From positions 34,397,501 to 34,461,500 of the forward strand of contig NC_073352.2 of assembly GCF_027580225.2 (NCBI RefSeq): a stretch of 64,000 nucleotides of DNA, written 5' to 3'. Shown piece after piece: positions 1 to 36,600 of the stretch. Position numbers and translations under genes: made by a program. The number at the start of each line of letters is the position of its first letter. Position 1 is the stretch's first letter. The DNA comes from Misgurnus anguillicaudatus. Taxonomy: Eukaryota > Chordata > Actinopteri > Cypriniformes > Cobitidae. The notes beneath the pieces are model-generated. The model was given only the letters and a program-made list of their open reading frames with translations, was not told the DNA's origin and ran no database searches.

Positions 1-59
1 TTATATACATTCAATGAACACAACATACAAAGTCTAACTTCATCACACGCTTTGGTGCA

Positions 60-215
60 CTCGTTTCTCTGTCTCTGTTGTTCTCGGTTGTCGGTTGTCG
101 GCTATGTAAACGGTGTTTTGTTTTTGTTTTTGTAGAGTGTATTGGACTCGCACTGCTCTTTGCCCGGGGTGGCGTGTGCTTCTTCTGTGGTGGCGGGGCG
201 AGGTGCATGATTTCT
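60..215 (+). other. A-to-G hypermutated block, left arm
   Basis: Aligned by eye to the reverse complement of about 11055-11213. Twenty-three differences are all A in the right copy and G in the left copy, including GAATAACATG becoming GGGTGGCGTG. The only other change is a length and composition difference in a T-rich tract. Flanking sequence on both sides matches closely. Confidence 0.8.
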
Positions 216-984
216 TCAATTTATAAAAACACAAGTAAACTTTTTATTGTAAAATAGTCAAATAAAATAGTAAGACTAAAGATATAGGCTAACTGATGAT
301 CCTTACATATGAAATACCCGCACAAAATCATCTAGGTATATTCTTAAAGCGACGTTGGTTTTATTACACCATAATATAAGAATAATAAATCAGTATATAC
401 TATAAAGATTCACTTTGCTATCATTTCCAACTGGTGTTGATTTGTTGTGTTGTGCTCGGAACGTCTGGGCTTCGGTCGGCTTTTTGGGGGGCTGAGCATT
501 AATTTGCTTTTTGGAGATTCCAACATCTGGTTGATTTTTGGGGATTCCAACATCTAGTTGATTTTTAACCCTTACCTATACATGTTGCTTGGCTCACTGT
601 AAACCCGGCATCCTTACCGTTATGTTTACCTTTAAATGACACAGAATATAATAGCACTTACCCCACAAAAACAAAAAATGTCACCACAGAAAACAGCAAC
701 AAACCATCTGGCAAATCGAGCGCTGCAGAACAACGGGCGAAATCCACGTGCCAGTCCAGATCAAAAACACCTCGCTCCACTATATACAGCTCCACAAGGC
801 AAAACAAAGATCCCACGCAGTCCACCACGCCACACCGGCAGTTTGATTATTGCGACCACCGTGTCCTTTAGTGGACTAGGGGCATTATGGGAAATGTAGT
901 CATTTTCACAAGGCGAATCGAACGCTGTATATGTTAAAGGTGCATTGTGTTACGTTTAAAAAGACAAAAATGCTAAATAATATA

Positions 985-1650
985 CATAACTATATTATCA
1001 GTGGTGTATAAGGACCTTACATAATGAACTGAATTGTTTCTATTACCTAAGAACGAGCCATTTTCACCTCCATTCACCGCTGGTCCCCTTATACGGAAGT
1101 CACCGTCACATCTCTACAGTAGCCCTAAACGTACAAACTCTTCTAAAGAGCACGTTTCTTCCCTACGTTGTCTCAGACGATGACATGTTTGTCGTGCGAC
1201 AGCTACCATATGGGTTTTAAAATTGAAGAGTGAGTTGTCCGCAGCAACCCACAACCCCACCACCAGACACCGCCAAACTCCACACACACCACCCCCAACT
1301 GGCCACTGTTTCCAAGATGCACCACGATCCAAGCCATCGCACCGGGAGAGAGAGCACACAGCGAGACACACCATTCACCATTCCACCTGTTGTTGTTGAC
1401 ACAATTCAATGTAAAGTGGAAGATCCTATTAATCTATAAAAAAAATAACGGCTTAAAGATAACTATTAGGGCTGAAACTAAAAACCCTCATATTAGCTGT
1501 GTACATTATGAAACTGATTTTATTTCACCTGTTTTACAAGTTAAAAAAATGTAAGCGTTAAGCAAGAATTCCTTTTTCTATGGGTGCGTAGAGCAGAGAG
1601 AATGATAGAGAAAATACCGGGAAAGACCTTTCCCACTGACACTTTAATAT
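985..1650. other. Left-arm-only segment
   Basis: About 660 bases face only about 80 bases in the right arm (10204-10285). Either the left arm gained an insertion or the right arm lost this part. No inverted ends or target duplication were found. A stretch at about 1235-1345 is unusually C-rich (runs such as ACCCCACCACC) beside AT-rich sequence and looks like the altered blocks elsewhere, but it has no partner to compare with. No gene is seen. Confidence 0.6.
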
Positions 1651-1969
1651 TCTATAGCTTCATAACTCGCACCGATGACTATGTGATGAGGGGCGTGTGA
1701 ATTGCTGTGTTTAGAGGGGACGGGTCAGGATTTTTAGGTTACAAATGAGAGCCTGAAACTTAGAGCTCTCACACCTCAGATACGACGCTCTGGCATGTTC
1801 ATTTAGCGGCAAATTTGAAGGCTACTTTCAGGAATTCTCCATTAAATTGTTTAAAGCAAAGTTTTTAACACGGCATAGCTCAACTGTGCAGGGTTCAAGG
1901 AGTTGCAGACGCTATTTTTGAGGACGGTGCAAGCACGACCGGAAGCTTAACAAAATAAGGGAGAGACTT

Positions 1970-2554
1970 GTGGACATACATCGTGTAAAGTTGTCTACGA
2001 CGCTGCGGATTCTTGAAAGGAGAGAACAAATGTCACTTGAGCGTGATCACAAACGCAAGATGCCGTACGTGTGCGGTCCTCCAGTTTTTAAAGAAATGCT
2101 TTCAGAACACTGCAGGAGTGAGCTTGTTAATATTTTTTATGCGGTAATATCTGCAAATGCTGATGTGTGCTTGCCGCAAAATTACCGCGAAACTGATGCC
2201 GTGCGCGTAACCAACCTCAAGAAAAAAACAGATGTCGTGAAAAGTCTGGACAAATCTTTTGATAAGATGGTTCAAGTGTCTGTTAACGCCGATGAACCGA
2301 TCAATGTGTTCATCAAAAAAGCCCTAGATGCTATGTATGAATGTGATGATGAGGAGGAGTTTGACATTGCTAACATCCTTCTCATGTCTGCATATGTAAT
2401 AGATGTATGTGTTGCCGTAGCGACAAAGAAGGACCAAATCAATGTGCGTGAAATTGTTGAAATTGCTGCTGACTTTCTGATCGACAAGGGTCTTGGCACA
2501 TGCATACACTTTCTATTGTATCTAGACAACATCATAACCTTTGGTGATGATTGA
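1970..2554 (+). CDS. Unidentified element protein, left-arm copy (weak Bcl-2-like pattern)
   Basis: The frame is open from about 1922. The 194-codon version starts at a GTG; the first ATG is at 2030 and would give 174 residues, and an upstream spliced exon is also possible. The N-terminus is basic (RRE, ERDHKRK). The rest looks helical, with an acidic stretch (ECDDEEEFD) followed by two hydrophobic helix-like segments at roughly residues 127-146 and 153-168. The order of a KSLDKSFDKM segment, a hydrophobic helix and a second helix ending in DFLIDKG resembles the BH3/alpha5/alpha6 layout of Bcl-2 proteins, but no diagnostic NWGR motif is present, so this is a weak inference. A poly(A) signal follows at 2818. 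The homologous frame in the right arm is also uninterrupted, which supports real coding capacity. Function is unknown. Confidence 0.55.
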   Translation: MDIHRVKLSTTLRILERREQMSLERDHKRKMPYVCGPPVFKEMLSEHCRSELVNIFYAVISANADVCLPQNYRETDAVRVTNLKKKTDVVKSLDKSFDKMVQVSVNADEPINVFIKKALDAMYECDDEEEFDIANILLMSAYVIDVCVAVATKKDQINVREIVEIAADFLIDKGLGTCIHFLLYLDNIITFGDD

Positions 2555-2817
2555 AAACAATGCGAGTTCCTGGGACACCTCGTACACCTGAAAAAACATT
2601 CACTTTTTTCACAACCTACCTTTAAACATTTGAACATGGTCTTTTAATTTTTCTTCACCTTCTTTCCATCTCTAGGCTGCTTATTTGATAAGTTCTGGTT
2701 TCAGCTCTTAGAAAGTTCATGATAAACGTTTGTGTGAAATGTTACCACTACATTCGGTCATTTGGACTTGTAAACATCTTGTTCATACAAAGTGTGACAC
2801 TTATTATGTTATGTAAA

Positions 2818-2823
2818 AATAAA
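2818..2823 (+). promoter_or_regulatory. Poly(A) signal AATAAA after the left-arm ORF
   Basis: AATAAA lies about 260 bases after the stop codon of the left-arm frame. At the matching place in the right arm (about 9046-9060, minus strand) the A residues have become G, so the hexamer is gone there. Use of the signal is inferred. Confidence 0.45.
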
Positions 2824-4988
2824 AGTGACTTGCATCAGTATGAAAAGCTAAATCCGTATGCATGACCTGATACAAATTTGGTGATTTTGTAACTTAGTGA
2901 TTTTTACATAGACACGTCAGTTACTTTGCATAACCTGTATAACTCTATGAAACGTGTCCTTCAATAACTGAATCATGCCAACATTTTTACTCAAGACTTT
3001 CAATACTTATCAGGACAATTTTAAGCACATTACAATATACCATCATTTATTTACCATTCGTAAAACATGCATAGTTGCAACACTACCATTCAGTTAGACT
3101 TTACATTTCTAGACTGTGTTTTTTCTCAAAGGTTGCTTATATTTACAGACAACACACTACACCTAAGTGTATCTTAACAATGGCAAACAGGAATACCAAC
3201 GTTTGCAAACAAGTGTAGTTAAGCACTTTGATTTTTGTCATAATTCACAGAAAGCAACAGTGAATCATCAAAACGTTGCTAGTTTTTTAGTTTCCGAAAG
3301 TATAAATTTTTTTACTTATCACACTGGTCCTCGCAAACAAACCAGGAACGTTATTCATCTGAACACTTTCACCAGACCTATGTCTTTGCTGTTTTTATTT
3401 AGACAATCTTTTGTTTTCATAGTTTTGATCTGTTCCTGTCAACTTTCTTCTGTATATCTTTCTCAGATTTCATAAACCTTTGAAACCTTTGTCTTAATGC
3501 CATCAATGTATTTATTACTTATCCGTTATTTGCTATACTTTATGTCATATTTTTTAGTTTACACCATTCATTTTTATAGAAAGTTTCAGAAACTCACATT
3601 TACACGGAATTATGATACATTTTACTTTTAATTGTGCCCAAGAGTGAGTGCTGGTTTAACAGGGGTAAACTGTTATCATGCCACAATCCCGAAGGTCCAC
3701 AATCCAAACAAGAGCCCTTCAACACCCCAAACACCACACCGACCCCGTTCAACTGAAAACCGCAAAATGATGTACAGACGAGTTCAAATTGTAAAAACAG
3801 CAGCAAGAAAACCAACAATGTTCCACTAGTACAATCGTCACTTATAGTTTTGTCATATGATGATGATATGATTTTTCATCTTTCAGGTGTTTGTTGAAGT
3901 ATTTTGGCACAACTGTTTATTCCAATCTTTAATCAGCCATACATGACAAAAGTTTTTGTTCTTGTTTATTTTAGTTTAACTCATCACACTAATTTATGCA
4001 AACAGAAATTGTCAGATTTCACGTTTTCAGGATTCAAGTGCACAACACACCGCGATCACCGTCTCAACTCGCTCTCCGATCCATCCAGAACATCCACAAA
4101 GCAACGACTGTCAAGATCCTCATGCACAGAGCGTCCGCTCCGGTCTCACAAAAACAACCATCCACACTCAAAACCTATGGCTTCTCTGTCTTAATGTCAT
4201 CAATTTATTATTTTGTCTACATCATCATCAAAATGTTTCACTATAAGAGTGTGCAAACTGTTTTACTTTGGTCTAGATTTTTATAGAAAGCTTCAGAAAA
4301 CGTCGGGGTGCTAACATTTACAAGAATGATGAAGCATTTTACCTTTAAATGGTCCAAAGAGTATGCGTTGGTGTACAAGCACTATCCCTGCCGCAACCAT
4401 CAAGAACATCACATTCGCAACAAGAACCACATCAAACATATGCTGCGCGCGCTCCAAACGATGACACCGCAGAGAAACCACCCAAAAGAGAACCAACCCC
4501 AACGCAAATTGCACACGGCCCCACGATCCCAAAAAACAGCAAGCTGCACCCAGCGCCTCCAACAAACAGCTACAATCACATCACAAGCCCAAATGTCTAG
4601 AAACACAAATCTTTTTGAAGACCTCACACAATAGTGATTTCATCTATCTGGAAAACTTTTAAAAAATATACGCACATGAGCTCAAGTAGTAAAAACAGTT
4701 GCAAGATATACTATTAATGCTCAACTAGTACATTGTATAAACTGTTAGTTTGTATAAATGACATGTCACGTTTGTAGGGGTTGTTGACGTATTTTAGACG
4801 CAAGTTGTTTATTCTAATCTTTAAACAATTGTGTATGACAAAAGTTGTTCTGACTGAACTGACATTAAGAAACGGTACTGAAATGCTAAAACTAGGTAGA
4901 TACAACTTCAACACAATATAGATGTTTTTAATCTATTGGTACCGATTTTAAATGTGTCCAAACTATTTCAACCATTACTAAGTTGTAG

Positions 4989-5396
4989 ATGTTTGCATCT
5001 TAATTTACAAGGTTTTTAACAAACAAACACACGTTCCTGTTTTGTCTTGCTCTGTTTCATAGCATTGCAACTGCATACTTAGGTACACCGCATTATGTTG
5101 AAAGGATTACTAAGTTAAAGCTAAACAATCTTTATTATGCTGTAGACGTTTGGCGTATATTTTCTATGGAATTGATGAATTTACATATTCAAACATTAAA
5201 TTTTTCCTATATTTATTGTATCACGGTGAAGGTTTTAGTAAGTAAATCTAAAACACACTTCACTGTGTTGCTGTGTTCCCTTAATCGTCTAGCAACAATT
5301 TTCAAGAGATTACCAACATGTATGATGTGCTAACTGTCAGGGGATCTGAGATGTACTTTATTATTTTCTGAAGTAATTAAAAAGTTAACTATCTAA
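4989..5396 (+). pseudogene. Left-arm partner of the 137-codon right-arm frame, with two stops
   Basis: This matches the 6463-6876 minus-strand frame codon for codon but contains two TAA stops, near its start (after MFAS) and about 20 codons before its end. At both places the right arm has TGG. The middle is nearly identical (FLFCLALFHSIATAYLGTPH). Whether the frame was ever a gene is unclear: if the right arm is the altered one, the open frame there is a by-product of A-to-G change. No family is recognised. Confidence 0.3.
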
Positions 5397-5623
5397 CACT
5401 TACTGCACAATAACTTAAGCGATAAAGAGTTTGACAAATGTTACTTAACCTATAGAAACGAAACCAACTGAATTACAACGTCACTGACATAAAGTTTACA
5501 CTTACAAAGAAAACAAATCACGCAGATGTTTAAAGCGAAGTTGTTCCACCCAGAGAGGTATGTCCCTTAACTCCAGGACTCATATCTCCGCCTACCTATT
5601 GCGTGCGTTAAAACGGTTCAAGT

Positions 5624-5911
5624 TTGGATCATTCAACGCATTCGCTTAACAAGTTTCAAGAAACGATGGACTCCTACTGCTACACCAACACATTCGCGCT
5701 ACCCACACCAGAGCATTATGAGGATGAGAGAACCTACAGCTGGACCTGCGCCCTCAAGAAGGCCAATGCAATGCCTAGTGCCAATGCGTCCCCTGCAAAG
5801 CCTGATGGAGGTCCATCACCCTACAACAACACCCTTTGTACGGCTCCAGTGATCCCTGATGATGTTCCAATGGAACTGTGTCCTCAAGAAGGACCCTGCA
5901 ATGCCTGCTGA
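5624..5911 (+). CDS. Unidentified loop ORF, Pro/Cys-rich
   Basis: A 95-codon frame rich in Pro, Asn, Thr and Cys (for example NAMPSANASPAKPDGGPSP). It contains the phrase SWTCALKKANAMPSA, and a similar phrase, QWNCVLKKDPAMPAD, occurs about 120 bases later in a different frame (5859-6041). The region therefore contains a diverged internal duplication with a frame shift between the copies. No family is recognised. It may be an exon of a gene that also uses the left-arm frame. Confidence 0.3.
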   Translation: MDHSTHSLNKFQETMDSYCYTNTFALPTPEHYEDERTYSWTCALKKANAMPSANASPAKPDGGPSPYNNTLCTAPVIPDDVPMELCPQEGPCNAC

Positions 5912-6041
5912 CAACTCATGGGTGGATGAGTTCTGCATGGATCTGTGGTACAGCACCCTGACTTTCCTCACAACTCAGTATGGCTGCACTGTAACAACAG
6001 TCTGCGCAATACACTTTGCGAGTATCGATTCCACAGACTGA
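5859..6041 (+). CDS. Unidentified loop ORF, possible BH2-like WVDEF motif
   Basis: A 60-codon frame overlapping the preceding one. After the repeated QWNCVLKKDPAMPAD phrase comes DNSWVDEFCMDLW (from about 5910), which resembles the BH2 pattern of Bcl-2 proteins (DNGGW..F..LY). This is a short match and cannot stand alone. The frame ends at 6041, and a third frame (about 6037-6177) carries a hydrophobic stretch beginning KIIKASVVILLLQLV that could be a membrane helix. If the three are one gene, frameshifts or introns are needed. Confidence 0.25.
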   Translation: MMFQWNCVLKKDPAMPADNSWVDEFCMDLWYSTLTFLTTQYGCTVTTVCAIHFASIDSTD

Positions 6042-6305
6042 TGGTTTCAAGATCATAAAAGCAAGCGTCGTGATACTTCTGTTGCAACTTGTTGACAAAA
6101 AGCTAAAGGCGCTCTGTAGCATCTGTGAAAACTCTTACCTATGTGGTTTGTGTGTGTGTTTTTACAATATCAAATAATGATCAGACTGCTGTTTGTGAAA
6201 TTATTGATCCGACGGATGCTTACATTCTCGAGAAAAACGTTGTGATGTGTATACATTTCTAAGCTACATTGGTGACATATGATGTATTTCTTTTACTTGC
6301 TGAGA

Positions 6306-6311
6306 AATAAA
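6306..6311 (+). promoter_or_regulatory. Poly(A) signal AATAAA at the loop/right-arm junction
   Basis: AATAAA lies just before the right arm begins and downstream of all + strand loop frames. It is a plausible 3' end for a transcript running left arm to loop. A G/T-rich stretch follows at about 6350-6380. Inferred from sequence only. Confidence 0.4.
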
Positions 6312-6462
6312 ATCTTGTTTCACTTTGAACGTCTGCGTGATTTGTTTTCTTTGTGGGTGTGGGCTTTGTGTCAGTGACTTTGTGGTTCGGTTGGTTTCGT
6401 TTCTATAGGTTAAGTAACATTGGTTAAACTCTTTATCGCTTAAGTTATTGTGCAGTTAAGTG

Positions 6463-6876
6463 TTAGATAGTTAACTTTTTAATTACTTCAGAAAACAACA
6501 AAGCACATCTCAGATCCCCCGACAGCCAGCACACCACACATGCCGGCAATCTCCCGAAAACCGTCGCTAGACGACCAAGGGAACACAGCAACACAGCGAA
6601 GTGTGTTTTAGATTTACTTACTAAAACCTTCACCGTGATACAGTAAATATAGGTAAAATGTAATGTTTGAATATGTAAATTCATCAATTCCATAGAAAAT
6701 ATACGCCAAACGTCTACAGCATAATAAAGATTGTTTAGCTTTAACTTAGTAATCCTTTCAACATAATGCGGTGTACCTAAGTATGCAGTTGCAATGCTAT
6801 GAAACAGAGCAAGACAAAACAGGAACGTGTGCCTGCCTGCCAAAAACCCTGTAAACCAAGATGCAAACATCCACAA
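6463..6876 (-). CDS. 137-codon ORF in right arm, probably opened by A-to-G changes
   Basis: The ORF starts MWMFASWFTGF and contains a hydrophobic stretch of about 15 residues (TFLFCLALFHSIATA), then a neutral helical middle. The left-arm equivalent has TAA where this copy has TGG at two codons, and all other differences in the flanking blocks are also A-to-G in this reading direction. The frame may therefore be secondary. No known domain is seen. Listed for completeness; coding status is doubtful. Confidence 0.25.
   Translation of the reverse strand: MWMFASWFTGFLAGRHTFLFCLALFHSIATAYLGTPHYVERITKLKLNNLYYAVDVWRIFSMELMNLHIQTLHFTYIYCITVKVLVSKSKTHFAVLLCSLGRLATVFGRLPACVVCWLSGDLRCALLFSEVIKKLTI
6485..6605 (+). 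other. T-to-C hypermutated block, right arm
   Basis: Aligned to the reverse complement of about 5255-5380. I count 19 substitutions and all are T in the left copy (reversed) and C here, including GAAAATTGTTGC becoming GAAAACCGTCGC. No other substitution class occurs in the block. On the minus strand these are A-to-G. Confidence 0.8.
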
Positions 6877-9304
6877 CCCAGCAACGGTTGAAATAGCCCG
6901 GACACATCCAAAATCGGCACCAATAGACCAAAAACATCTATATTCTGTTGAAGTTGTATCTACCTGGTTATAGCACTTCAGTACCGTTTCTTAATGTCAG
7001 TTCAGTCAGAACAACTTTTGTCATACACAATTGTTTAAAGATTAGAATAAACAACTTGCGTCTAAAATACGTCAACAACCCCTACAAACGTGACACGTCA
7101 TTTATACAAACTAACAGTTTATACAATGTACTAGTTGAGCATTAATAGTATATCTTGCAACTGTTTTTACTATTTGAGCTCATGTGCGCATATTTTTGGA
7201 GGGTTTTCCAGATGGATGGAATCACTGTCGTGTGGGGTCTTCGGGGGGATTTGTGTTTCTGGACATTTGGGCTTGTGATGTGATTGTAGCTGTTTGTTGG
7301 AGGCACTGGGTACAGCTTGCTGTTTTTTGAGGCCGTGGGGCCGGGTGCAGTTTGCGTTGGGGTTGGTTCTCTTTTGAGTGGTTTCTCTGCGGTGTCGTCG
7401 TTTGGAACACGCGCAGCATGTGTTTGATATAATTCTTGTTACGAATATAATATTCTTGATGGTTGCAACAAAGATAGTACTTGTACACCAACGCATACTC
7501 TTTGGACCATTTAAAGGTAAAATGCTTCATCATTCTTGTAAATGTTAGCACCCCGACATTTTCTGAAGCTTTCTATAAAAATCTAGACCGAAGCAAAACA
7601 GCCTGCACACTTCCACAGCGAAACACTCCGATGATGATGCAGACAAAACAATAAATTGATGACATCAAGACAGAGACGCCACAGGCCTTGAGTGCAAATG
7701 GTTGTTTTTATGAGACCAGAGCAAACACTCCGCGCATGAAGATCTTAACAATCGTTACTTTGTAGATATTCTAGATAAATCAGAGAACGAGCCCAGACAG
7801 CAATCGCAATGTGCTGTGCACCCGAACCCCGAAAACGCGAAATCCGACAACCCCTGCCCGCACAAATCAGTGTGATGAGCCAAACCAAAACAAACCAAAA
7901 CAAAAAACTTTTGTCATGCATGGCTGATCAAAGACCGGAACAAACAGCCGCGCCAAAACACCTCAACAAACACCCGAAAGATGAAACATCATATCATCAT
8001 CATATGACAAAACTATAAGTGACGATTGTACTAGTAAAATATTATTAGTTTTCTTACTACTGTTTTTACAATTTGAACCCGTCTGTACATCATTTTACAG
8101 TTTTCAGTTAAACGAAATCAGTATAGTGTTTGGGGTGTTGAGGGGCTCTTGTTTGGATTGTGGACCTTCAGGATTGTGGCGTGGTTGCAGTTTGCCCCTG
8201 TTGGGCCAGCACTCACTCTTGGGCACAATTAAAAGTAAAATGTATCATAATTCCGTGTAAATGTGAGTTTCTGAAACTTTCTATAAAAATGAATGGTGTA
8301 AACTAAAAAATATGACATAAAGTATAGCAAATAACGGATAAGTAATAAATACATTGATGGCATTAAGACAAAGGTTTCAAAGGTTTATGAAATCTGAGAA
8401 AGATATACAGAAGAAAGTTGACAGGAACAGATCAAAACTATGAAAACAAAAGATTGTCTAAATAAAAACAGCAAAGACATAGGTCTGGTGAAAGTGTTCA
8501 GATGAATAACGTTCCTGGTTTGTTTGCGAGGACCAGTGTGATAAGTAAAAAATGTATACTTTCGGAAACTAAAAAACTAGCAACGTTTTGATGATTCACT
8601 GTTGCTTTCTGTGAATTATGTCAAAAATCAAAGTGCTTAACTACACTTGTTTGCAAACGTTGGTATTCCTGTTTGCCATTGTTAAGATACACTTAGGTGT
8701 AGTGTGTTGTCTGTAATTATAAGCAACCTTTGAGAAAAAACACAGTCTAGAAATGTAAAGTCTAACTGAATGGTAGTGTTGCAACTACGCATGTTTTACG
8801 AATGGTAAATAAATGCTGGTATATTGTAATGTGCTTAAAATGGTCCTGATAAGTATTGAAATTCTTGAGTAAAAATGTTGACATGATTCAGTTATTGAAG
8901 GACACGTTTCATAGAGTTATACAGGTTATGCAAAGTAACTGACGTGTCTATGTAAAAATCACCAAGCTACAAAATCACCAAATTTGCATCAGGTCATGCA
9001 TACGGACCTAGCTCTTCATACTGATGCAAGTCACCTCCACTTCTACATAACATAATAAGTGTCACACCTTGCATGAATAAGATGCTTACAAGTCCAAATG
9101 ACCGAACGTAGTGGCAACATCCCACACAAACGCCCATCACGAACTTTCCAAGAGCCGAAACCAGAACCCATCAAACAAGCAGGCCACAGATGGAGAGAAG
9201 GTGAAGAAAAAATTAAAAGACCATGTTCAAATGTTTAAAGGTAGGTCGTGAAAAAAGTAAATGTTTTTCAGGTGTACGAGGTGTCCCAGGAACTCGCATT
9301 GTTT

Positions 9305-9889
9305 TCAATCATCACCGGGGGTTGTGGTGTTGTCTGGATGCAGTGGAGGGTGTGGGCACGTGCCAGGACTCTTGTCGATCAGAAAGTCAGCAGCAATTTC
9401 AACAATTTCACGCACATTGATCTGGTCCTTCTTTGTCGCTACGGCAACACATACATCTATTACATATGCAGACATGAGGAGGATGTTAGCAATGTCAAAC
9501 TCCTCCTCATCATCACATTCATACATAGCATCTAGGGCTTTTTTGATGAACACATTGATCGGTTCATCAGCGTTAACAGACACTTGAACCATCTTATCAA
9601 AAGATTTGTCCAGACTTTTCACGACATCTGTTTTTTTCTTGAGGTTGGTTACGCGCACGGCATCAGTTTCGCGGTGGTTTTGCGGCGGGCACACATCAGC
9701 ATTTGCAGATATTGCCGCATAGAGAATGTTGGCGGGCTCGCTCCTGCGGTGTTCTGAAGGCATTTCTTTGGAGGCTGGAGGACCGCACACGTGCGGCGTC
9801 TTGCGTTTGTGATCACGCTCAAGTGACATTTGTTCTCTCCTTTCAAGAATCCGCAGCGTCGTAGACAACTTTACACGATGTATGTCCAC
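9305..9889 (-). CDS. Hypermutated right-arm copy of the element protein
   Basis: This is the right-arm partner of the 1970-2554 frame. It has the same length and is uninterrupted, but carries two clusters of missense changes. Near the N-terminal third (residues about 31-72) the changes are Met to Thr, Tyr to His, Val to Ala, Phe to Ser, Leu to Pro, Cys to Arg, Phe to Leu and others. At the C-terminus (last about 22 residues) several Leu, Ile, Phe and Tyr become Pro, Thr or His. Nearly all are T-to-C in the coding sense, equal to A-to-G on the + strand. The central about 100 residues are identical to the left copy. Loss of hydrophobic residues to proline suggests that the left copy is nearer the ancestral state and that this copy is probably non-functional. 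Confidence 0.5.
   Translation of the reverse strand: MDIHRVKLSTTLRILERREQMSLERDHKRKTPHVCGPPASKEMPSEHRRSEPANILYAAISANADVCPPQNHRETDAVRVTNLKKKTDVVKSLDKSFDKMVQVSVNADEPINVFIKKALDAMYECDDEEEFDIANILLMSAYVIDVCVAVATKKDQINVREIVEIAADFLIDKSPGTCPHPPLHPDNTTTPGDD
9650..9800 (+). other. A-to-G hypermutated block inside the right-arm coding frame
   Basis: Compared with the reversed left arm at about 2060-2205. The differences are nearly all A to G on the + strand and produce the cluster of Leu-to-Pro, Val-to-Ala and Tyr-to-His changes in the protein. The coding sequence between this block and the next at 9305-9390 is almost unchanged, so the edges are sharp. Confidence 0.75.
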
Positions 9890-11272
9890 AAGTCTCTCCC
9901 TTATTTTGTTAAGCTTCCGGTCGTGCTTGCACCGTCCTCAAAAATAGCGTCTGCAACTCCTTGAATCCTGCACAGTTGAGCTATGCCGTGTTAAAAACTT
10001 TGCTTTAAACAATTTAATGGAGAATTCCTGAAAGTAGCCTTCAAATTTGCTGCTAAATGAACATGTCAGAGCGTCGTATCTGAGGTGTGAGAGCTCTAAG
10101 TTTCAGGCTCTGATTTGTAACCTAAAAATCCTGACCCGTCCCCTCTAAACACAGCAATTCACACGCCCCTCATCACATAGTCATCGGTGCGAGTTATGAA
10201 GCTATACTGCCCTACAAAGCGCAGTAACTACGCATTTGGTCAAAATTGAGTTAAGGGTTAAAATGGGCTTTGCGAGATCTGTTGATTGTTTGGCATTTTT
10301 GTCTTTTTGGAGGTGGCACGGTGCACCTTTGGCATGTGCAGCGTTCGATTCGCCTTGTGAGGGTGACTGCATTTCCCATGTTTCCCCTGGTGCACTGGGG
10401 GACACGGTGGTCGCGGTGGTCGGGCTGCCGGTGTGGCGTGGTGGACTGCGTGGGATCTTTGTTTTGCCTTGTGGAGCTGTGTATAGTGAAGCGAGGTGTT
10501 TTTGGTCTGAACTGGCACGTGGATTTCACCCGTTGTTCTACGGCGCTCGATTGGCCGGATGGTTTGTTGCTGTTTTCTGTGATGACATTTTTTGTTTTTA
10601 TGGGGTAAGTGCTATTATATTCTCTGTCATTTAAAGGTAAACATAACGGTAAGCATGCCGGGTTTACAGTGAGCCAAGCAACATGTATAGGTAAGGGTTA
10701 AAAATCAACTAGATGTTGGAATCTTTAAAAATCAACTAGATGTTGGAATCTTTAAAAAGTAAATTAATGCTCAGCCCCCCAAAAAGCTGACTGAAGTTCA
10801 GATGTTTTGAGTACAACACAATAAATCAACATTAGTTGGGAATGATAGCAAAGTGAATATTTATAGTATATACTGATTTATTATTCTTATATTATGGTGT
10901 AATAAAACCAACGTCGCTTTAAGAATATACCTAGATGATTTTGTGCGGGTATTTCATATGTAAGGATCATCAGTTAGCCTATGTCTTTAGTCTTACTATT
11001 TTATTTGACTATTTTACAATAAAAAGTTTACTTGTGTTTTTATAAATTGAAGAAATCATGTACCTCGCTTTGTCACCACAGAAGAAGTACATGTTATTCT
11101 GGGTAAAGAGTAGTGTGAGTTTAATACACTTTATAAAAAAAAAAAAAAAAAAAAAAACACCGTTTACATAGCCGACAACTGATAACTGAGAACAACAGAG
11201 ACAGAGAAATGAGTGCATCAAAGCATGTGATGAAGTTAGACTTTGTATGTTGTGTTCATTGAATGTATATAA

Positions 11273-11424
11273 TTTGATTGTCTTGTATGGAGTAATTTGT
11301 CAAATATTATTAAATATTATATTAAATACAAAAGCACTAAAAGTTTTAGTGTTTTGGCTAAGGAGTGTGAGCAGGTACATTATAAGTATTCCAACTAAAT
11401 AAAATGTGCATTGTCTGCACAGTA
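11273..11424. other. AT-rich flank
   Basis: Short AT-rich DNA between the foldback element and the first Tc1-like copy. No feature is seen. Confidence 0.5.
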
Positions 11425-11980
11425 TACACTCACCTAAAGGATTATTAGGAACACTATACTAATACTGTGTTTGACCCCCTTTCGCCTTCAGAACTGCTTT
11501 AATTCTACGTGGCATTGATTCAACAAGGTGCTGAAAGCATTCTTTAGAAATGTTGGCTCATATTGATAGGATAGCATCTTGCAGTTGATGAAGATTTGTG
11601 GGATGCACATCCAGGACACGAAGCTCCCGTTCCACCACATCACAAAGATGCTCTATTGGGTTGAGATCTGGTGACTGTGGGGGCCATTTTCCCTTTTCAC
11701 ACCATTCTTTGCAAACCCTAGTAATGGTTGTGCGTGAAACTGAGCAGATTGTGAAATACTCAGACCGGCCCGTCTGGCACCAACAACCATGCCACACTCA
11801 AAATTGCTTAAATCACCTTTCTTTCCCATTCTGACATTCAGTTTGGAGTTCAGGAGATTGTCTTGACCAGGACCACACCCCTATATGCATTGAAGCAACT
11901 GCCATGTGATTGGTTGATTAGATAATTGCATTCATGGTAAATTGAACAGGTGTTCCCAATAATCCTTTAGGTGAGTGCAT
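11425..11980 (-). mobile_element. Internally deleted Tc1/mariner element (copy 1)
   Basis: The ends read TACACTCACCTAAAGGATTA and, inverted, AATCCTTTAGGTGAGTG, the same terminal repeats as the copies at 17609 and 24899, and they sit at TA dinucleotides. The minus-strand remnant joins the N-terminal HTH part (SRTTITRVCKEWCEKGK) directly to the C-terminal KWPPQSPDLNPIEHL part. The middle of the transposase, with the first two catalytic Asp residues, is deleted. It is a non-autonomous derivative. Confidence 0.85.
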
Positions 11981-13444: not shown

Positions 13445-14630
13445 GGGCCCGAGCACACCGGGGTGTGAGGACCCTATTGTTCTTCAAGGAGTTATTATTA
13501 TTATTTTTTTTCTTTTTCTCCGACTTCAGCGGGACTTTAGAGGGCCTAAACATACTCGAAAACTCATGAAATTTTGCACAGATGTCAAGAGTGATGAAAA
13601 TTTACATGTGGTGTATGCTTTAGAATTAGGCGTGAGAAAATGGCTCTATAGCGCCACCTACAAATTTTCAACGAAGCAGCCCTCGGACTGTGTTTGACGT
13701 ACAATTACGAAATTCGGTACGCGTCTGTAGCATGACAAGACCTACAAAAAAGTCTCTTGGAGCGAAGCCGTAAACCAAACAGGAAGTCAGTTATTCTGAG
13801 TTATTTTTGTGATTTGGGCGCAGTTTTTGTCATTTCCAGGCGTCATACTTTAACTAACTCCTCCTACAGTTTTCGTCGGATCATCTTCATATTTGGTGAG
13901 TGTCATCTTAAGGCCTTTGTGATGCTAAATTGCGAAGGATTTGACTCTACGTAAAAATTTGTGTCGGTTCTGGCCCGACAAAGTTTGATGTTTTCCAATG
14001 AAACAGGAAGTTGCTGGAACTCATGCATACAATGTCCGATCTGTCCCAAATTTCACATGATTGCTAAGAGTCCTGACCTGAACACATCTACATAACAATT
14101 TTCATTTATAGCCATAGCCCCACCAGCTGGCAACCTGAAGGAACATGTTTTAGCGCCACTTTCAAATATTGAATGAAGCAGCCCTTGGACTGTGTTTAAC
14201 TTACATGTACGAATTTCGGTACGCTCATGTATTATTACAAGCCCTACAAAAAAGTCTCTTGGAGCAACGCCCTAAACCAAACAGGAAGTCAGCTATTTTG
14301 AATTATTTCTCAGATTTTGGCTCAGTTTTTCTCATTTCCAGCAGTCATACTTTAACTAACTCCTCCTACAGTTTTCGTCGGATCATCATCATATTTGGCG
14401 AGTGTCATCTTAAGGCCTTTGTGATGATAAATTGCGAAGGATTTGATTCTATATTAAAATTTGTGTCTATTTCGGCCAGCCAAAGTTTGATGTTTCGCTA
14501 TGAAACAGGTTGCTGGAACTCAGGCATACAGTGTCCGATCTGTCCCAAACTTCACATGATTGCTAAGAGTCATGACCTGAACACATCTACATGTCAATAG
14601 TCACTTATGGTTATAGCGCCACCAGCTGGC

Positions 14631-15534
14631 AACAGGAAGTGACATGTTTACAATGATTATCCAATGTCTGATCTGTCCCAAACTTCACATGATTAATAAG
14701 AGTCCTGGACTGAACACATCTACATGTCAATAGTCACTTATGGTTATAGCGCCACCAGCTGGCAACAGGAAGTGACATGTTTACAATGATTATCCAATGT
14801 CTGATCTGTCCCAAACTTCACATGATTAATAAGAGTCCTGGAGTGAACACATCTACATGTCATTAGTCACTTATGGTTATAGCGCCACCAGCTGGCAACA
14901 GGAAGTGACATGTTTACAATGATTATCCAATGTCTGATCTGTCCCAAACTTCACATGATTAATAAGAGTCCTGGAGTGAACACATCTACATGTCAATAGT
15001 CACTTATGGTTATAGCGCCACCAGCTGGCAACAGGAAGTGACATGTTTACAATGATTATCCAATGTCTGATCTGTCCCAAACTTCACATGATTAATAAGA
15101 GTCCTGGACTGAACACATCTACATGTCAATAGTCACTTATGGTTATAGCGCCACCAGCTGGCAACAGGAAGTGACATGTTTACAATGATTATCCAATGTC
15201 TGATCTGTCCCAAACTTCACATGATTAATAAGAGTCCTGGACTGAACACATCTACATGTCAATAGTCACTTATGGTTATAGCGCCACCAGCTGGCAACAG
15301 GAAGTGACATGTTTACAATGATTATCCAATGTCTGATCTGTCCCAAACTTCACATGATTAATAAGAGTCCTGGAGTGAACCATCTACATGTCATTAGTCA
15401 CTTATGGTTATAGCGCCACCAGCTGACAACAGGAAGTGACATGTTTACACTGATTATGCAATGTCCGATCTTTCCCTAACTTCACATGATTAATAAGAGT
15501 CCTGGACTGAACACATCTACATGTCAATAGTCAC
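14631..15534. repeat. Tandem array, 133-bp unit, about 7 copies
   Basis: The phrase AACAGGAAGTGACATGTTTA starts at 14631, 14764, 14897, 15030, 15163 and 15296, exactly 133 bases apart, then at 15428 (132). The units are nearly identical, with a few alternating variants (GGACTGAAC/GGAGTGAAC, GTCAATAG/GTCATTAG), which points to recent unequal exchange or slippage. The array resumes at 16936 after the hAT-like insertion. Confidence 0.93.
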
Positions 15535-17155: not shown

Positions 17156-17608
17156 ATGCTATCTTACACGATGCTACCTCGCTGTCATTTGTAATTAGCA
17201 ACAGGAAATGTGGCACATTATACTACACTTTTAAATGGTTCACCTATGTTTACATGCTTAAATGCCTATTTACTACTGTTCCCTTTAATTCTTCTCATGC
17301 CACGGCGTGGCGGTGTCAGGTGTGCGAGGGCCCTTCCATCACTGCTTGCAGTTTTAATGATATTTATAACCTAGAAACTTCCTACTGTAGACCAACATCT
17401 GTGCATCATGTACCCCTAAAAAAGCGAAATGTTCCCAAAAACGAACATTAATTAAAGATTAAGCAAAAAAAACATGCTCTTGTTACACACATTAAAACAT
17501 CAGATATATGCTTTTATTTATGTTCTTGTTGTTCTTTACAGCACTACAGTATGTAACAGATGGATATGAGGAAAATGTCATTTTTAGCCTCAAAATAATT
17601 AGTAAGTA

Positions 17609-18753
17609 TACACTCACCTAAAGGATTATTAGGAACACCATACTAATACTGTGTTTGACCCCCTTCGCCTTCAGAACTGCCTTAATTCTACGTGGCATTG
17701 ATTCGACAAGGTGCTGAAAGCATTCTTTAGAAATGTTGGCTCATATTGATACGATAGCATCTTGCAGTTGATGGAGATTTGTGGGATGCACATCCAGGAC
17801 ACGAAGCTCCCGTTCCACCACATCCCAAAGATGCTCTATTGGGTTGAGATCTGGTGACTGTGGGGGCCATTTGAGTACAGTGAACTCATTGTCATGTTCA
17901 AGAAACCAATTTAAAATGATTTGAGCTTTGTGACATGGTGCATTATCCTGCTGGAAGAAGCCATCATAGGATGGGTACATGTGGTCATAAAGGGATGGAC
18001 ATGGTCAGAAACAATGCTCAGGTAGGTCGTGGCATTTAAACGATGCCCAATTGGCACTAAGGGGCCTAAAGTGTGCCAAGAAAACATCCCCCACACCATT
18101 ACACCAGCAGCCTCCACAGTGGTAACAAGGCATGATGGATTCATGTTCTCATTCTGTTTACGCCAAATTCAGACTCTACCATCTGAATGTCTCAACAGAA
18201 ATCGAGATTCATCAGACCAGGCAACATTTTTTAAGTCTTCAACTGTCCAATTTTGGTGAGCTCATGCAAATTGTAGCCTCTTTTTCCTATTTGTAGTGTG
18301 GTACCCGGTGGGGTCTTCTGCTGTTGTAGCCCATCCGCCTCAAGGTTGTGCGTGTTGTGGCTTCACAAATGCTTTGCTGCATACCTCGGTTGTAATGAGT
18401 GGTTAACATCAACAAGGCATTTTCACCCACATGACTGCCGCATGCTGGATGTTTTTCCCTTTTCACACCATTCTTTGTAAGCCCTAGAAATGGTTGTGCG
18501 TGAAAATCCCAGTAACTGAGCAGATTGTGAAATACTCAGACCGGCCCGTCTGGCACCAAGAACCATGCCATGCTCAAAATCGCTTAAATCACCTTTCTTT
18601 CCCATTCTGACATTCATGTGGAGTTCAGGAGATTGTCCTGACCAGGACAACACCCCTAAATGCATCGAAGCAACTGCTATGTGATTGGTTGATTAGATAT
18701 TGCATTAATGAGAAATTGAACAGGTGTTCCTAATAATCCTTTAGGTGAGGGTA
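17609..18753 (-). mobile_element. Degenerate Tc1/mariner element (copy 2)
   Basis: Terminal repeats CACTCACCTAAAGGATTATT and (inverted) AATAATCCTTTAGGTGAG sit at TA sites. The minus strand encodes broken transposase pieces: MGKKGDLSDFEHGMVLGARR with SISQSAQLLGFSRTTISRAY (HTH part, 18423-18665), then a core with NPSCLVTT, and QQDNAPCHK to SPDLNPIEHLW (17741-17980). The spacing from the Asp of QDNAP to the Glu of PIEHLW is 36 residues by count. Small deletions and stops separate the pieces, so it is not functional. Confidence 0.88.
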
Positions 18754-24898: not shown

Positions 24899-26047
24899 TG
24901 CTTCAATGCATTTAGGGGTGTGGTCCTGGTCAAGACAATCTCCTGAACTCCAAACTGAATGTCAGAATGGGAAAGAAAGGTGATTTAAGCTATTTTGAGC
25001 GTGGCATGGTTGTTGGTGCCAAGCAGGCCGGTCTTCAGAGTATTTCACAATCTGCTCAGTTACTGGGACTTTCACGCACAACCATTTCTAGGGTTTACAA
25101 AGAATTATGTGAAAATGGAAAAACATCCAGTATGCGGCAGTCCTGTGGGCAAAAATGCCTTGTTGATGCTAGAGGTCAGAGGAGAATGAGCCGACTGATT
25201 CAAGCTGATAGAAGAGCAACTTTGACTGAAATAACCACTCGTTACAACCGAGGTATGCAGCAAAGCATTTGTGAAGCCACAACACGCACAACCCTGAGGC
25301 GGATGGGCTACAACAGCAGAAGACCCCACCCGGTACCACTCATCTCCACTACAAATAGGAAAAAGAGGCTACAATTTGCACGAGCCCAACAAAATTGGAC
25401 AGTTGAAGACTAGAAAAATGTTGCCTGGTCTGATGAGTCTCCATTTCTGTTGAGACATTCAGATGGTAGAGTCAGAATTTGGTGTAAACAGAATGAGAAC
25501 ATGGATCCATCATGCCTTGTTACCACTGTGCAGGCTGGTGGTGGTGGTGGTGTAATGATGTGGGGGATGTTTTCTTGGCACACTTTAGGCCCCTTAGTGC
25601 CAATTGGGCATCGTTTACATGCCACGCCCTATCTTAGCATTGTTTTTGACCATGTCCATCCCTTTATGACCACCATGTACTCATCCTCTGATGGCTACTT
25701 CCAGCAGGATAATGCACCATGTCACAAAGCTCAAATCATTTCAAATTGGTTTCTTGAACATGACAATGAGTTCACTGTACTAAAATGGTCCCCACAGTCA
25801 CCAGATCTCAACCTAATAGAGCATCTTTGGGATGTGGTGGAACGGGAGCTTCGTGCCCTGGATGTGCATCCCATAAATCTCCATCAACTGCAAGATGCTA
25901 TCCTATCAATATGGGTCAACATTTCTAAAGAATGCTTTCAGCACCTTGTTGAATCAATGCCGCGTAGAATTAAGGCAGTTCTGAATGCGAAAGGGGGTCA
26001 AACACAGTATTAGTATGGTGTTCCTAATAATCCTTTAGGTAAGTATA
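24899..26047 (+). mobile_element. Tc1/mariner element, 5'-truncated (copy 3)
   Basis: Homology to copy 2 begins inside the element (near AGTTGCTTCAATGCATTTAG) and the left terminal repeat is missing. The right end is intact: TTCCTAATAATCCTTTAGGT followed by a TA. It carries the most complete transposase frame of the three copies. Loss of the left end means it cannot be mobilised. Confidence 0.88.
24967..26013 (+). pseudogene. Tc1/mariner transposase with one internal stop (DD36E-type spacing)
   Basis: One reading frame runs from MGKKGDLSYF to the terminal TQY, about 348 codons, broken only by a TAG at 25411-25413 where copies of this type have Trp before KNVAWSDES. The N-terminal part holds the paired HTH DNA-binding region (ISQSAQLLGLSRTTISRVYK). 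The catalytic core shows Asp in VAWSDES, Asp in QQDNAPCHK and Glu in LNLIEHLWDV. By count, 36 residues separate the second Asp and the Glu, the spacing of the published DD36E (Incomer) group and not the DD34E of classic Tc1. There is one extra Gln codon in GLQSISQS compared with copy 2. It is probably a recently silenced copy. Confidence 0.85.
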
Positions 26048-33650: not shown

Positions 33651-36600
33651 GACCAATTCATTCTAAAAGAAAATCCTAGGTTTGTAAATGGACATGAAAA
33701 ACTGACTCTGGATCATTTTGCCACTTAATAAAGCCACAAACCTATTATAGATATTAGAGAACAATTTAACAAATTATTACAGTACATGCTTTAGCACCTT
33801 TATCATATATCAGTTCCATTGTTTTGTCTCAAGATGCACACCAATAACGTTTTTGTAAGGTTTGTAAAAACTAAATCTAAATTGATTAATTTAAACCATG
33901 TTCTGGAAACTGCTCCAATGTGTTTTATCAAATCTGTTTTAGCAACACTGGATTGTAAATAACCCAGCATGTTTTTTTAGAGAGTATACAGATTTAAGGT
34001 TTTACATATATGTGAACTTGCAACATGATCTCATGGAAATATTTATGTATTTGTACCACACCTACATTTACTTATGTTTTATACACACTGAAACGTATAA
34101 CATTGACATGTTTACAGGGCTAAAACATTTATTATTTATGTATTAACAGCTTTACCGACATACAGATCTGTCCAGCCTGATCTCACGAGAATTCGTATGT
34201 ATTTTACGAGTTGGTTATTTCTAAAAACAAAACTCCACCCCTAACCACAACATTACAGATCAAAGGAAAACATGCAAAAATGTACACATTTGGTTGTACA
34301 AATAAGCCACCTCTGAAAATAGGTACAAATTGCCATGAGATAGTATTGCATTTGTCTGTTTTCCTATTTTATAAATATTAAAATGGCGAGCATTGCTGTT
34401 TCTTACTCATTTTAATGTCATGTTTTCAGTCGTATTTATAAAAGGTATTTCATCCTTTTGGAAAATTACATAATATTAAACTGAGACAAAGACTGAGACA
34501 AGACACTTTTAAACCTTAAAATGAATAACATTTCTGTAATCATTAAACCCTTTTGTAATATTTAGTTTGCCATGACACACAAAAGGCTTTTTTCCTATGC
34601 AGTCTTCTCATATGCAACAATAAATAGACTCAAATTCACAAAAGATGTCAATTTTTTATTTGCTGACATTTTGTGTTTTTGAAATTTATTCAAATTATTT
34701 ATTATTACAACGTTTGAGACCAGGCCGGATCTTCTCATCCACACAGCTGACCTGCAGAAAGTCTATCCTTATCAGATGAAAACAGTGAATGCATTGAAAC
34801 CATTATATGAGACTGAAACCAATAAAAGAGTTCTTATATTAGCCTTTTAGATTTTGCTGATGAGAGGCACATTGCTCAGGGAGAAGTGGGAAGAAAAATC
34901 AGCAAATGCAATTAGGGAGAATATTACAAAACTGAGCTTGCAGAGTGAGGAAAAAGCATATTTATAAGCTGAAAAGATTGCGTTTGGACGCCCACGTGTT
35001 CCTCACAGAGTAGATGCACATGTTTGCTGTGGTACTTTAGCAGCACAAGTTGTATGTTCTCATCAGCACATCTCCCCCCGGGACCGAACTAAACGTAAAA
35101 TCTGGATTTAGAAGAAGAAACGCACCAGGCACGGATTTAAAGAGATGATCTGAAACAATTCCTACATGAGATGTTAAAACCTGAACAAAAATGCTCAAAG
35201 AATTTCAGATTGAATGTACTTGGATACTTTCAAGATAACATTAAAAATTGTTGTGAAGTATCATCAGATTAGGAAGGCATGGCACATTCTCTGTTTTAAA
35301 GTACAATGTTAGAAAAACATTTTGAAAAATATTGTATGTACCCCAACTGTCGCATAGGTACAGATATGTATAAATTTGGTACCAAAATGTACCTTTGAGA
35401 TACTATTATTTGAGGTAACTCTTTGGATACAAAGGCTACAGCCCCAGTGACAGCTATTTTGACCATTTGTTTTGCCAGTTTACTCGTAGAAGAAAGTGAT
35501 CGCATGAATAAGTCATGTTGGTTAACTATACAAAATGGCAAATCAGATTTTTTTGGGGACAACCTGCGTGTTTTTTATAAAAAGTTCAAATGCACAAAGT
35601 TAAGTTTGTTCATTAGGTTAATAAATATGTGACCCATTGTTCATTTCATATGTAATGGGTACGAATCTAAATAAAGCATGCTATTAAACAGCAGTATAGC
35701 TGATTAGAGCTCAGAACAACCTCATATATTCAAATTAAATCTTTTTTGGTTGTGTACAAGACACTATTATCACAATGAAAATGAGCAGAAGTGTGCAGCT
35801 GGTGGTCTCTGCTACAATCCGTCTGACTCCACGGGCCGCCCCTCGTGCCAACAGTGCCATGTGCGCCACCGTGTGACGCTGAACACCTGAGAACCTGTGC
35901 CAAATCTGATGAAACGCACCCCGTCGAGAGCCAGATTGCATGCATTTCCACACACTCGAGAGTGCATGCTTGATTTTCAGGTAAAGAGGGTTTGACCGGC
36001 GGTCCATAAGAGAATGTTACAATTATGATTTCAGAAGGTTGCATTGTTGAATTGCTTGCACCGAATCTATAAAACAAAAACAACTAAGTAGGCACTCTTC
36101 ACTAATTTAATTTTCTCCAAATACAGCTCTCACTAACAGTATTTTGAGACGCTGTTCTGAAGGAAAGGCCATCGCAGGTAATGTTTTGTTTGATACCGTT
36201 TCATATTCCAGGTTAATCACACACAGCCAGACAAATTTCATCCCACTTACTGCCTCAATAAGACGCCATCATTGCCCCGCGGCCTTATGGGACACATGAT
36301 GAATGGAACGGGACCGCGAGCGCCATAACACAATAGTGGTGTGATTATGAGAGCTAAATGGAGGCCGACATTGACATGCTTCGAAAGCAAAGATGATAAT
36401 AATAGCATCACACCAGTCATTACAGTAAGTATGCCATTTTCTCAACATTCTGTTCGAGCACAGATGAAATTTCCTGATGGTTGCCTCTACTTTGGCTTTT
36501 TGTCAGGTGAGCTGTAAAAACATTTACGGTGAATTGAGAGATGTTGCAGAGATCGTCCACTAATTGGACAAGCAATTTTAGATGCTCCACAATCTTTTTC

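What the first reader, a model, noticed from the sequence alone, without database searches (positions are those of the whole stretch)
1..11272. Clustered one-directional A-to-G / T-to-C hypermutation between arms of a giant inverted repeat
The two arms of this foldback are almost identical except in about 15 blocks, each roughly 40-200 bases, where the differences are nearly all one transition class. Examples counted by eye: 23 of 23 substitutions A-to-G at 60-215, and 19 of 19 T-to-C at 6485-6605. Even AAA runs change to GGG. Ordinary divergence would give mixed changes spread evenly. The pattern is what adenosine deamination (A to I, read as G) of double-stranded nucleic acid leaves, as known for ADAR acting on viral RNA. 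Here it appears fixed in genomic DNA of an element whose transcript could fold into a hairpin with about 5 kb arms. Possible routes are editing of the hairpin RNA followed by copying into DNA, deamination of DNA in RNA:DNA hybrids or a cruciform, or a biased error-prone polymerase. I know of no described DNA element with this behaviour; that is not a search result.
Basis: partly seen in the sequence, partly recalled or inferred. Interest (0 to 1): 0.96.

Follow-up and report, generated by a model that had tools for sequence, protein, structure and literature searches.

The report
ADAR-like DNA hypermutation in a palindrome
A giant inverted repeat in what is probably an animal genome carries about 18 short patches where roughly half of the A letters on one DNA strand became G, with the neighbour preferences of the RNA-editing enzyme ADAR, so RNA edits were likely written back into inherited DNA, a route that would be new if confirmed.

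Summary
The arms (1-5539, 6319-11272) align over 4,866 columns with 393 substitutions, 360 of them transitions; 282 of 392 neighbouring substitutions are of one type (shuffles 92 +/- 8), and 18 one-type blocks hold 317. Direction is A to G: the changed arm is skewed, the other arm's median is background, and an internal paralogue agrees at 24 of 31 informative sites. The fingerprint is ADAR's: edited fraction by 5' neighbour T 0.81, A 0.66, C 0.44, G 0.18; by 3' neighbour G 0.67, A 0.64, C 0.58, T 0.42. Other substitutions are not raised in tracts. In the 16 larger blocks 309 of 541 adenines changed, against 18 of 644 on the strand that would pair with them in a hairpin, 17 of these in three adjoining blocks. 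So a hairpin RNA edited on both arms and copied back whole does not fit. Best explanation: patches (~50-320 bp) of ADAR-edited transcripts were copied back during repair; main rival: ADAR acting on the DNA strand of RNA:DNA hybrids. The deaminase fingerprint is strong; the route into DNA is inferred. No RNA data, species name or other copies were available.

The parts
1..5539 (+). left arm of the inverted repeat (may continue left of the window); 982-1652 has no partner in the right arm
6319..11272 (-). right arm; partner of 1-5539
5540..6318 (.). spacer between the arms
55..205 (+). left-arm tract, A to G on + strand, 24 changes
433..542 (+). left-arm tract, A to G on + strand, 18 changes
661..839 (-). 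left-arm tract, A to G on - strand; overlaps the homologous right-arm tract (661-785 fits independent edits better, 786-839 shared edits)
1239..1387 (-). tract in the left-only segment, from composition and context alone
3735..3824 (-). left-arm tract, A to G on - strand, 15 changes; the region just before it (3655-3734) looks edited in both arms
4050..4163 (-). left-arm tract, A to G on - strand, 22 changes; overlaps right-arm tracts on the strand that would pair with it in a hairpin
4380..4590 (-). left-arm tract, A to G on - strand
5657..5834 (-). possible tract in the spacer, weak, from composition alone
   Evidence: lowest LLR per base of the hits inside the repeat
6327..6389 (+). right-arm tract, A to G on + strand, 11 changes
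6496..6597 (-). right-arm tract, A to G on - strand, 19 changes
6832..6929 (-). right-arm tract, A to G on - strand, 22 changes (not found by the single-sequence detector)
7198..7426 (+). right-arm tract, A to G on + strand
7594..7733 (-). right-arm tract, A to G on - strand, 19 changes (not found by the single-sequence detector)
7792..7975 (-). right-arm tract, A to G on - strand, 33 changes
8126..8205 (+). right-arm tract, A to G on + strand
8963..9185 (-). right-arm tract, A to G on - strand, 28 changes
   Evidence: part of it
9317..9366 (+). right-arm tract, A to G on + strand, 13 changes
9676..9798 (+). right-arm tract, A to G on + strand, 21 changes, inside a 210-codon open frame
10265..10605 (+). 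right-arm tract, A to G on + strand, running to the structural difference between the arms (10207-10284)
   Evidence: 10288-10605; 10265-10584

Best explanation
Short tracts in both arms of this palindrome have A changed to G on one DNA strand with ADAR's neighbour preferences, most likely because transcripts of the palindrome were hyper-edited by an ADAR enzyme and stretches of the edited RNA were then, by inference, copied back into one arm at a time. Steps shown: one-type tracts, A-to-G direction, ADAR-like 5' and 3' context, concentration in the repeat within this window, one strand of one arm per larger tract. Steps inferred: the repeat is or was transcribed in the germ line; arm-to-arm pairing makes long dsRNA, the normal ADAR substrate; the edited RNA (or its cDNA) served as template when the palindrome was repaired, giving patches of about 50-320 bp; a few places were hit again in the other arm, and arm-to-arm gene conversion may have shared part of one tract. 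The deaminase part I put at about 0.87; the RNA-to-DNA copying route is the uncertain half.
For: Tract structure and one-type runs. Direction: in all 16 tracts with 8 or more changes the changed arm is reached by at most 1.12% of same-length background windows, while the other arm's median rank is 0.50 (single ranks 0.09-0.96; the highest, 3655-3718, looks edited in both arms); internal paralogue 24 of 31 informative sites A/T, log likelihood ratio 14.9 nats (7 further sites had another base, 6 had no unedited outgroup). Context: 5' T 113/139, A 119/181, C 63/144, G 14/77, chi-square p 7e-21; within-tract permutation 0 of 5,000; order T>A>C>G in 99.9% of 2,000 tract bootstraps, 5'T above 5'G in 15 of 16 tracts. 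Published order for human ADAR1: 5' U>A>C>G, 3' G>C~A>U; long dsRNA reaches 40-50% conversion (PMC11019741, passages); here 309 of 541, 57%, in tracts cut at their outermost edits, which raises the figure. No rise of other substitutions in tracts (17 tv + 12 ts in 2,081 columns against 16 + 24 in 2,785). Concentration: 2,552 of 11,272 bases in the repeat against 275 of 52,728 outside, which favours arm-to-arm dsRNA over R-loops anywhere. RNA-templated break repair and polymerases with reverse-transcriptase activity (Pol eta, theta, zeta) are described (PMC12686478, passages).
Against: Strands that would pair in the hairpin are not edited together except in three adjoining blocks (17 of the 18 partner changes, of 644 sites), so a second, selective step must be assumed. 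One tract (1239-1387) lies in a segment with no partner in the other arm, unless the partner was lost. No transcript, no hallmark of reverse transcription and no second individual was seen. Another inverted repeat in the window (56812-57542) shows mixed changes, so an inverted repeat alone is not enough. The genome search did not answer in eight tries, so no other copies were compared. The context rates used in the detector come from these same tracts, so it is no independent proof of context.
Confidence: 0.45

Rival explanations
1. ADAR deaminates the DNA strand itself in RNA:DNA hybrids (R-loops) formed on one arm; unrepaired deoxyinosine is then replicated as G.
For: Explains directly one strand of one arm per tract and no editing of the hairpin partner (309/541 own, 18/644 partner, 3/629 opposite strand of the same arm), and the tract in the left-only segment. 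ADAR1/2 are reported to deaminate dA in the DNA strand of hybrids (review PMC12599245, passages; the primary paper PMC5389660 is not held); DNA-strand editing during break repair is discussed as possible in PMC8448848 (passages), and PMC11817618 cites a personal communication of direct ADAR DNA deamination in R-loops in myeloma (passages).
Against: Hybrids form genome-wide (recalled), yet tracts in this window are concentrated in the repeat. 57% conversion is near what dsRNA gives; the review says deamination in hybrids is more efficient at A-C mismatches.
Confidence: 0.3
2. The tracts are gene-conversion patches from hyper-edited retrocopies (or edited viral or element cDNA) elsewhere in the genome.
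For: Tract length and sharp edges are conversion-like; one region (786-839) is identical in both arms and skewed.
Against: No donor in the rest of the 64-kb window (no hit at 1e-6); 661-785 and 4433-4590 fit independent events better. The rest of the genome could not be searched.
Confidence: 0.1
3. An error-prone polymerase that puts G opposite T (Pol iota is recalled, from no call) filled short gaps.
For: Single-strand patches with A-to-G only.
Against: Other substitutions not raised in tracts; the 5' order T>A>C>G with avoidance of 5' G is ADAR's.
Confidence: 0.05
4. The direction is the reverse: a cytidine deaminase (APOBEC/AID-like) or RIP changed C to T in the other arm.
For: Read backwards, G-to-A has a 3' G excess (0.73), which resembles an APOBEC3G context (recalled). 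In 7 of 31 outgroup sites the outgroup has G/C.
Against: It would need the ancestor to be strongly G/C-skewed in every tract; the supposedly mutated arm has a background-like median rank; outgroup 24 of 31 A/T. Adjacent A edits would make a 3' G excess by themselves (inference).
Confidence: 0.03
5. Assembly or base-calling artefact of a long palindrome.
For: Palindromes are hard to read (recalled); raw reads were not available.
Against: Arms differ structurally (982-1652), tracts use both strands and both arms, and errors would have to imitate the ADAR context.
Confidence: 0.05
6. Ordinary variation between two ancient subfamilies.
For: None found beyond the existence of differences; other copies could not be searched.
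Against: One-type tracts, composition and context.
Confidence: 0.02

Closest known systems
ADAR hyper-editing of long dsRNA and viral RNA
   Same: A-to-G only, dense, neighbour order, inverted-repeat substrate (PMC11019741 and PMC5625713, passages)
   Different: Here the changes are in the DNA sequence, on one strand of one arm per larger tract; dsRNA is edited on both strands (recalled)
ADAR deamination of DNA in RNA:DNA hybrids
   Same: Would give single-strand A-to-G in DNA (PMC12599245, passages)
   Different: In the passages read it is hybrid resolution and DNA lesions, not fixed hypermutated tracts in a palindrome
Deaminase-driven reverse-transcription model
   Same: ADAR edits in RNA copied back into genomic DNA, scoring as A-to-G; also ADAR DNA deamination in R-loops (PMC11817618, passages)
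   Different: In the passages read it is argued from strand biases of somatic mutations in cancer and antibody genes; here whole tracts at 40-72% conversion (the 16 larger blocks) in assembled genomic DNA
APOBEC DNA editing of retroelements
   Same: One-type, strand-coordinated deaminase clusters in genomic DNA (recalled; only a title seen in a reference list)
   Different: Cytidine, not adenosine; opposite direction
Diversity-generating retroelements (recalled)
   Same: Adenine-specific change through RNA copied into a roughly 100-bp DNA patch
   Different: Bacterial and viral; A to any base; need their own reverse transcriptase, and no such family matched in the repeat

Membership tests
ADAR-type adenosine deamination | A-to-G direction | tested here: met
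ADAR-type adenosine deamination | 5' order U>A>C>G with G avoided | tested here: met
   T .81, A .66, C .44, G .18 in the 16 larger blocks
ADAR-type adenosine deamination | 3' G favoured, U disfavoured | tested here: met
   G .67, A .64, C .58, T .42; the order among G, A and C is not resolved, and 3' G against the rest is only p 0.048
ADAR hyper-editing of a hairpin RNA | both paired strands edited in the same place (recalled) | tested here: not met
   18 of 644, 17 of them in three adjoining blocks
ADAR hyper-editing of a hairpin RNA | RNA reads carry the edits, DNA does not | not testable with these tools
   no RNA data; the changes are in the assembled DNA
ADAR-type adenosine deamination | host has an ADAR gene | not testable with these tools
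   The genome search not answered; a Tc1-type transposase in the window suggests an animal
APOBEC/AID or RIP | C-to-T direction | tested here: not met
Error-prone polymerase tracts | other errors raised in the tract | tested here: not met
Mobile foldback element | transposase or known element family in the arms, or other copies | tested here: inconclusive
   no Pfam family above its cut-off among all 26 stop-to-stop frames of 90 or more codons; no other copy in the window; genome not searchable; left end outside the window
RNA-templated repair or reverse transcription | RT dependence, intron loss or poly(A) at patches | not tested
   no reads or gene models

The most novel reading that the evidence does not exclude
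A germ-line mutational process in an animal writes ADAR editing into the genome: self-complementary transcripts of a long palindrome are hyper-edited and patches of the edited RNA are repeatedly copied back into the arms, so that the locus diversifies adenine by adenine and progressively loses its own dsRNA pairing, an RIP-like self-disarming of inverted repeats by RNA editing.
Probability: 0.4. Interest if true: 0.96.

Novelty: categorically new. Interest (0 to 1): 0.92.

Why it matters
It would be direct evidence in inherited DNA that an RNA-editing enzyme leaves heritable, tract-wise mutations, giving a testable locus for the argued questions whether edited RNA is copied back into genomes and whether ADARs mutate DNA in hybrids. 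The single-sequence detector and the neighbour test can be applied to any genome.

Tried and rejected
Homologues of the 210-codon frame (1922-2554): none at E up to 1 among 242 word-sharing candidates, none in IMG/VR; a 25-base exact pattern from the arm: none in IMG/VR. Spacer frame 5666-5908: none (1 candidate). Pfam: no family above its cut-off in the 26 frames of 90 or more codons in the repeat (10, 1, 8, 7); below the cut-off the best was WBP-1, 22.6 bits against 28.1, in 7170-7526. Rfam at gathering score: nothing; tRNAs: none. The AlphaFold model of the 210-residue frame was poor (mean pLDDT 42), so no fold search was made. A viral copy-back genome or integrated viral RNA was considered and dropped for lack of any viral family match above cut-off. 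Pol iota and APOBEC readings are set aside as given under rivals. A single edited hairpin transcript copied whole was set aside because both window strands and both arms carry tracts and partner strands are mostly not co-edited. The first, unfiltered outgroup count was weaker (33 of 48) because the outgroup unit is itself edited in places; the filtered count is 24 of 31. Rows dropped: the two blocks with only 4 changes each (709-785, 726-777, where both arms look edited) were left out (neighbour part; composition part; lengths). Literature: 10 searches of open-licence PMC papers; among the papers listed I saw no title or abstract start that describes ADAR-type hypermutated tracts in germ-line palindromes. 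Long lists were cut (12 of 122; 12 of 18), and most subscription papers are not held, so absence is weak evidence.
Full report
Observation. A self-comparison of the window finds a long inverted repeat. The arms align as 1-981 and 1653-5539 against the reverse complement of 11272-10285 and 10206-6319, with a 779-base spacer. The left arm starts at window base 1, so the true outer end is not seen. Over 4,866 aligned columns there are 393 substitutions, 360 of them transitions. Neighbouring substitutions are of the same type in 282 of 392 cases (5,000 shuffles: mean 92, sd 7.8, maximum 122), and the longest one-type run is 22. Eighteen blocks with at least four changes (gaps of 40 or less) hold 317 of 393; 16 have at least eight. 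The 16 are 50-223 bases long, median 106.5. The other repeat pairs of the window with 8 or more differences have mixed changes, for example 23 transitions of 38 spread over all four kinds in a Tc1-type pair; two short pairs lean one way (4 of 10, 5 of 10).

Direction. In the 16 larger blocks the changed arm has G/(A+G), or C/(C+T) for the complementary class, of 0.59-0.84, reached by at most 1.12% of same-length background windows, whereas the other arm has a median rank of 0.50 (range 0.09-0.96; the highest, 3655-3718, looks edited in both arms). Two diverged copies of a unit inside each arm (about 3570-3957 and 4277-4849, about 70% alike) allow an outgroup test: at 31 informative changed sites with an unedited outgroup letter, 24 outgroup letters are A/T and 7 G/C; the expectation is 0.895 A/T if A/T is ancestral and 0.274 if G/C is (log likelihood ratio 14.9 nats). 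Seven further sites had another base and six had no unedited outgroup. The unfiltered count was 33 of 48.

Context. Of 541 adenines in the 16 larger blocks 309 are changed. By 5' neighbour: T 113 of 139, A 119 of 181, C 63 of 144, G 14 of 77; by 3' neighbour: G 60 of 90, A 116 of 180, C 69 of 119, T 64 of 152. A permutation within tracts never reaches the observed T-minus-G statistic in 5,000. Bootstrapping tracts keeps the order T>A>C>G in 99.9% of 2,000, and 15 of 16 tracts have 5'T above 5'G. The published order for human ADAR1 is 5' U>A>C>G and 3' G>C~A>U (PMC11019741, passages); zebrafish sites also lack 5' G and have some excess of 3' G (PMC8096273, passages). Here the 3' effect is weaker than the 5' one: T is disfavoured, while 3' G against the rest is p 0.048. 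Substitutions other than the tract's own type are not raised inside tracts, as expected of a deaminase and not of a sloppy polymerase. Read in the opposite direction the data would show a 3' G excess, which adjacent A-to-G edits would produce by themselves.

Anatomy of the tracts. A pair model on the fixed alignment gives tracts on both strands of both arms. In the 16 larger blocks the hairpin partner strand has 18 of 644 changes, 17 of them in the three adjoining blocks 3885-4067, 4050-4163 and 4126-4265; the opposite strand of the same arm has 3 of 629; the same strand of the other arm 5 of 237. So a larger tract is one strand of one arm. The exceptions are three regions (661-839, 3655-3734, 4433-4590) that look edited in both arms in the same sense; a context-based likelihood prefers independent edits at 661-785, 3690-3734 and 4433-4590 and shared edits at 786-839 (settings chosen by me, rough). 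The two 4-change blocks at 709-785 and 726-777 belong there and were left out of the tests on larger blocks. A detector trained on simulated editing of the background, with the context rates, finds 20 tracts in the window, 17 in the repeat (2,552 of 11,272 bases) and 3 outside (275 of 52,728): one CA microsatellite and two GC-rich stretches (35819-35932, 51096-51187); Markov-simulated background gives none in five times 52 kb. It misses the tracts at 6832-6929 and 7594-7733, and it adds one in the left-only segment (1239-1387) and a weak one in the spacer (5657-5834).

Interpretation. The fingerprint is that of an ADAR. The way into DNA is inferred. Editing of a single hairpin transcript followed by wholesale copying is disfavoured by the strand and arm pattern. 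Two routes remain: patches of edited RNA, or of its cDNA, copied into one arm during repair; or direct deamination of the DNA strand in RNA:DNA hybrids. I prefer the first because the tracts are concentrated in the one place of the window where long, near-perfect dsRNA would form and because conversion is about as high as long dsRNA gives; the second explains the one-arm pattern and the left-only tract more simply. Passages read for these routes: PMC12686478, PMC11817618, PMC12599245, PMC8448848, PMC5625713. Zheng et al. 2017 is known here only through the review (not held).

Limits. Species unknown; Tc1-type transposase frames at 24916-26013 point to an animal, and from recall the sequence at 11421 resembles fish Tc1 elements. 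The genome search did not answer in eight tries. No RNA, reads, relatives or populations were available. Absence from print rests on ten searches of an open-licence library.

Noticed in passing
1922-2554 and 9305-9937: A 210-codon open frame is kept in both arms in spite of 21 + 13 T-to-C changes in one of them; no homologue found.
   Followed up: partly
6463-6990 against 5004-5333: The right-arm frame is longer (175 against 109 codons), likely because A-to-G changes removed stop codons in the edited arm.
   Followed up: no
982-1652 and 10207-10284: The largest structural difference between the arms lies at the end of a right-arm edited tract (10265-10605), as if a break and repair happened there.
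   Followed up: partly
24916-26013, 11421-11975, 17605-18749: Tc1-type transposase frames and related fragments; their differences are mixed, so they serve as a local control.
   Followed up: partly
56812-57542: A second, shorter palindrome without one-type hypermutation: an inverted repeat alone is not sufficient.
   Followed up: partly
14526-15534: Tandem array with a period of about 133 bases, neighbouring copies about 97% alike by offset self-match.
   Followed up: no
115-140 and 11135-11157: A run of T in the right arm (read in reverse complement) corresponds to a T-run broken by G in the left arm; the G may be edited A.
   Followed up: no
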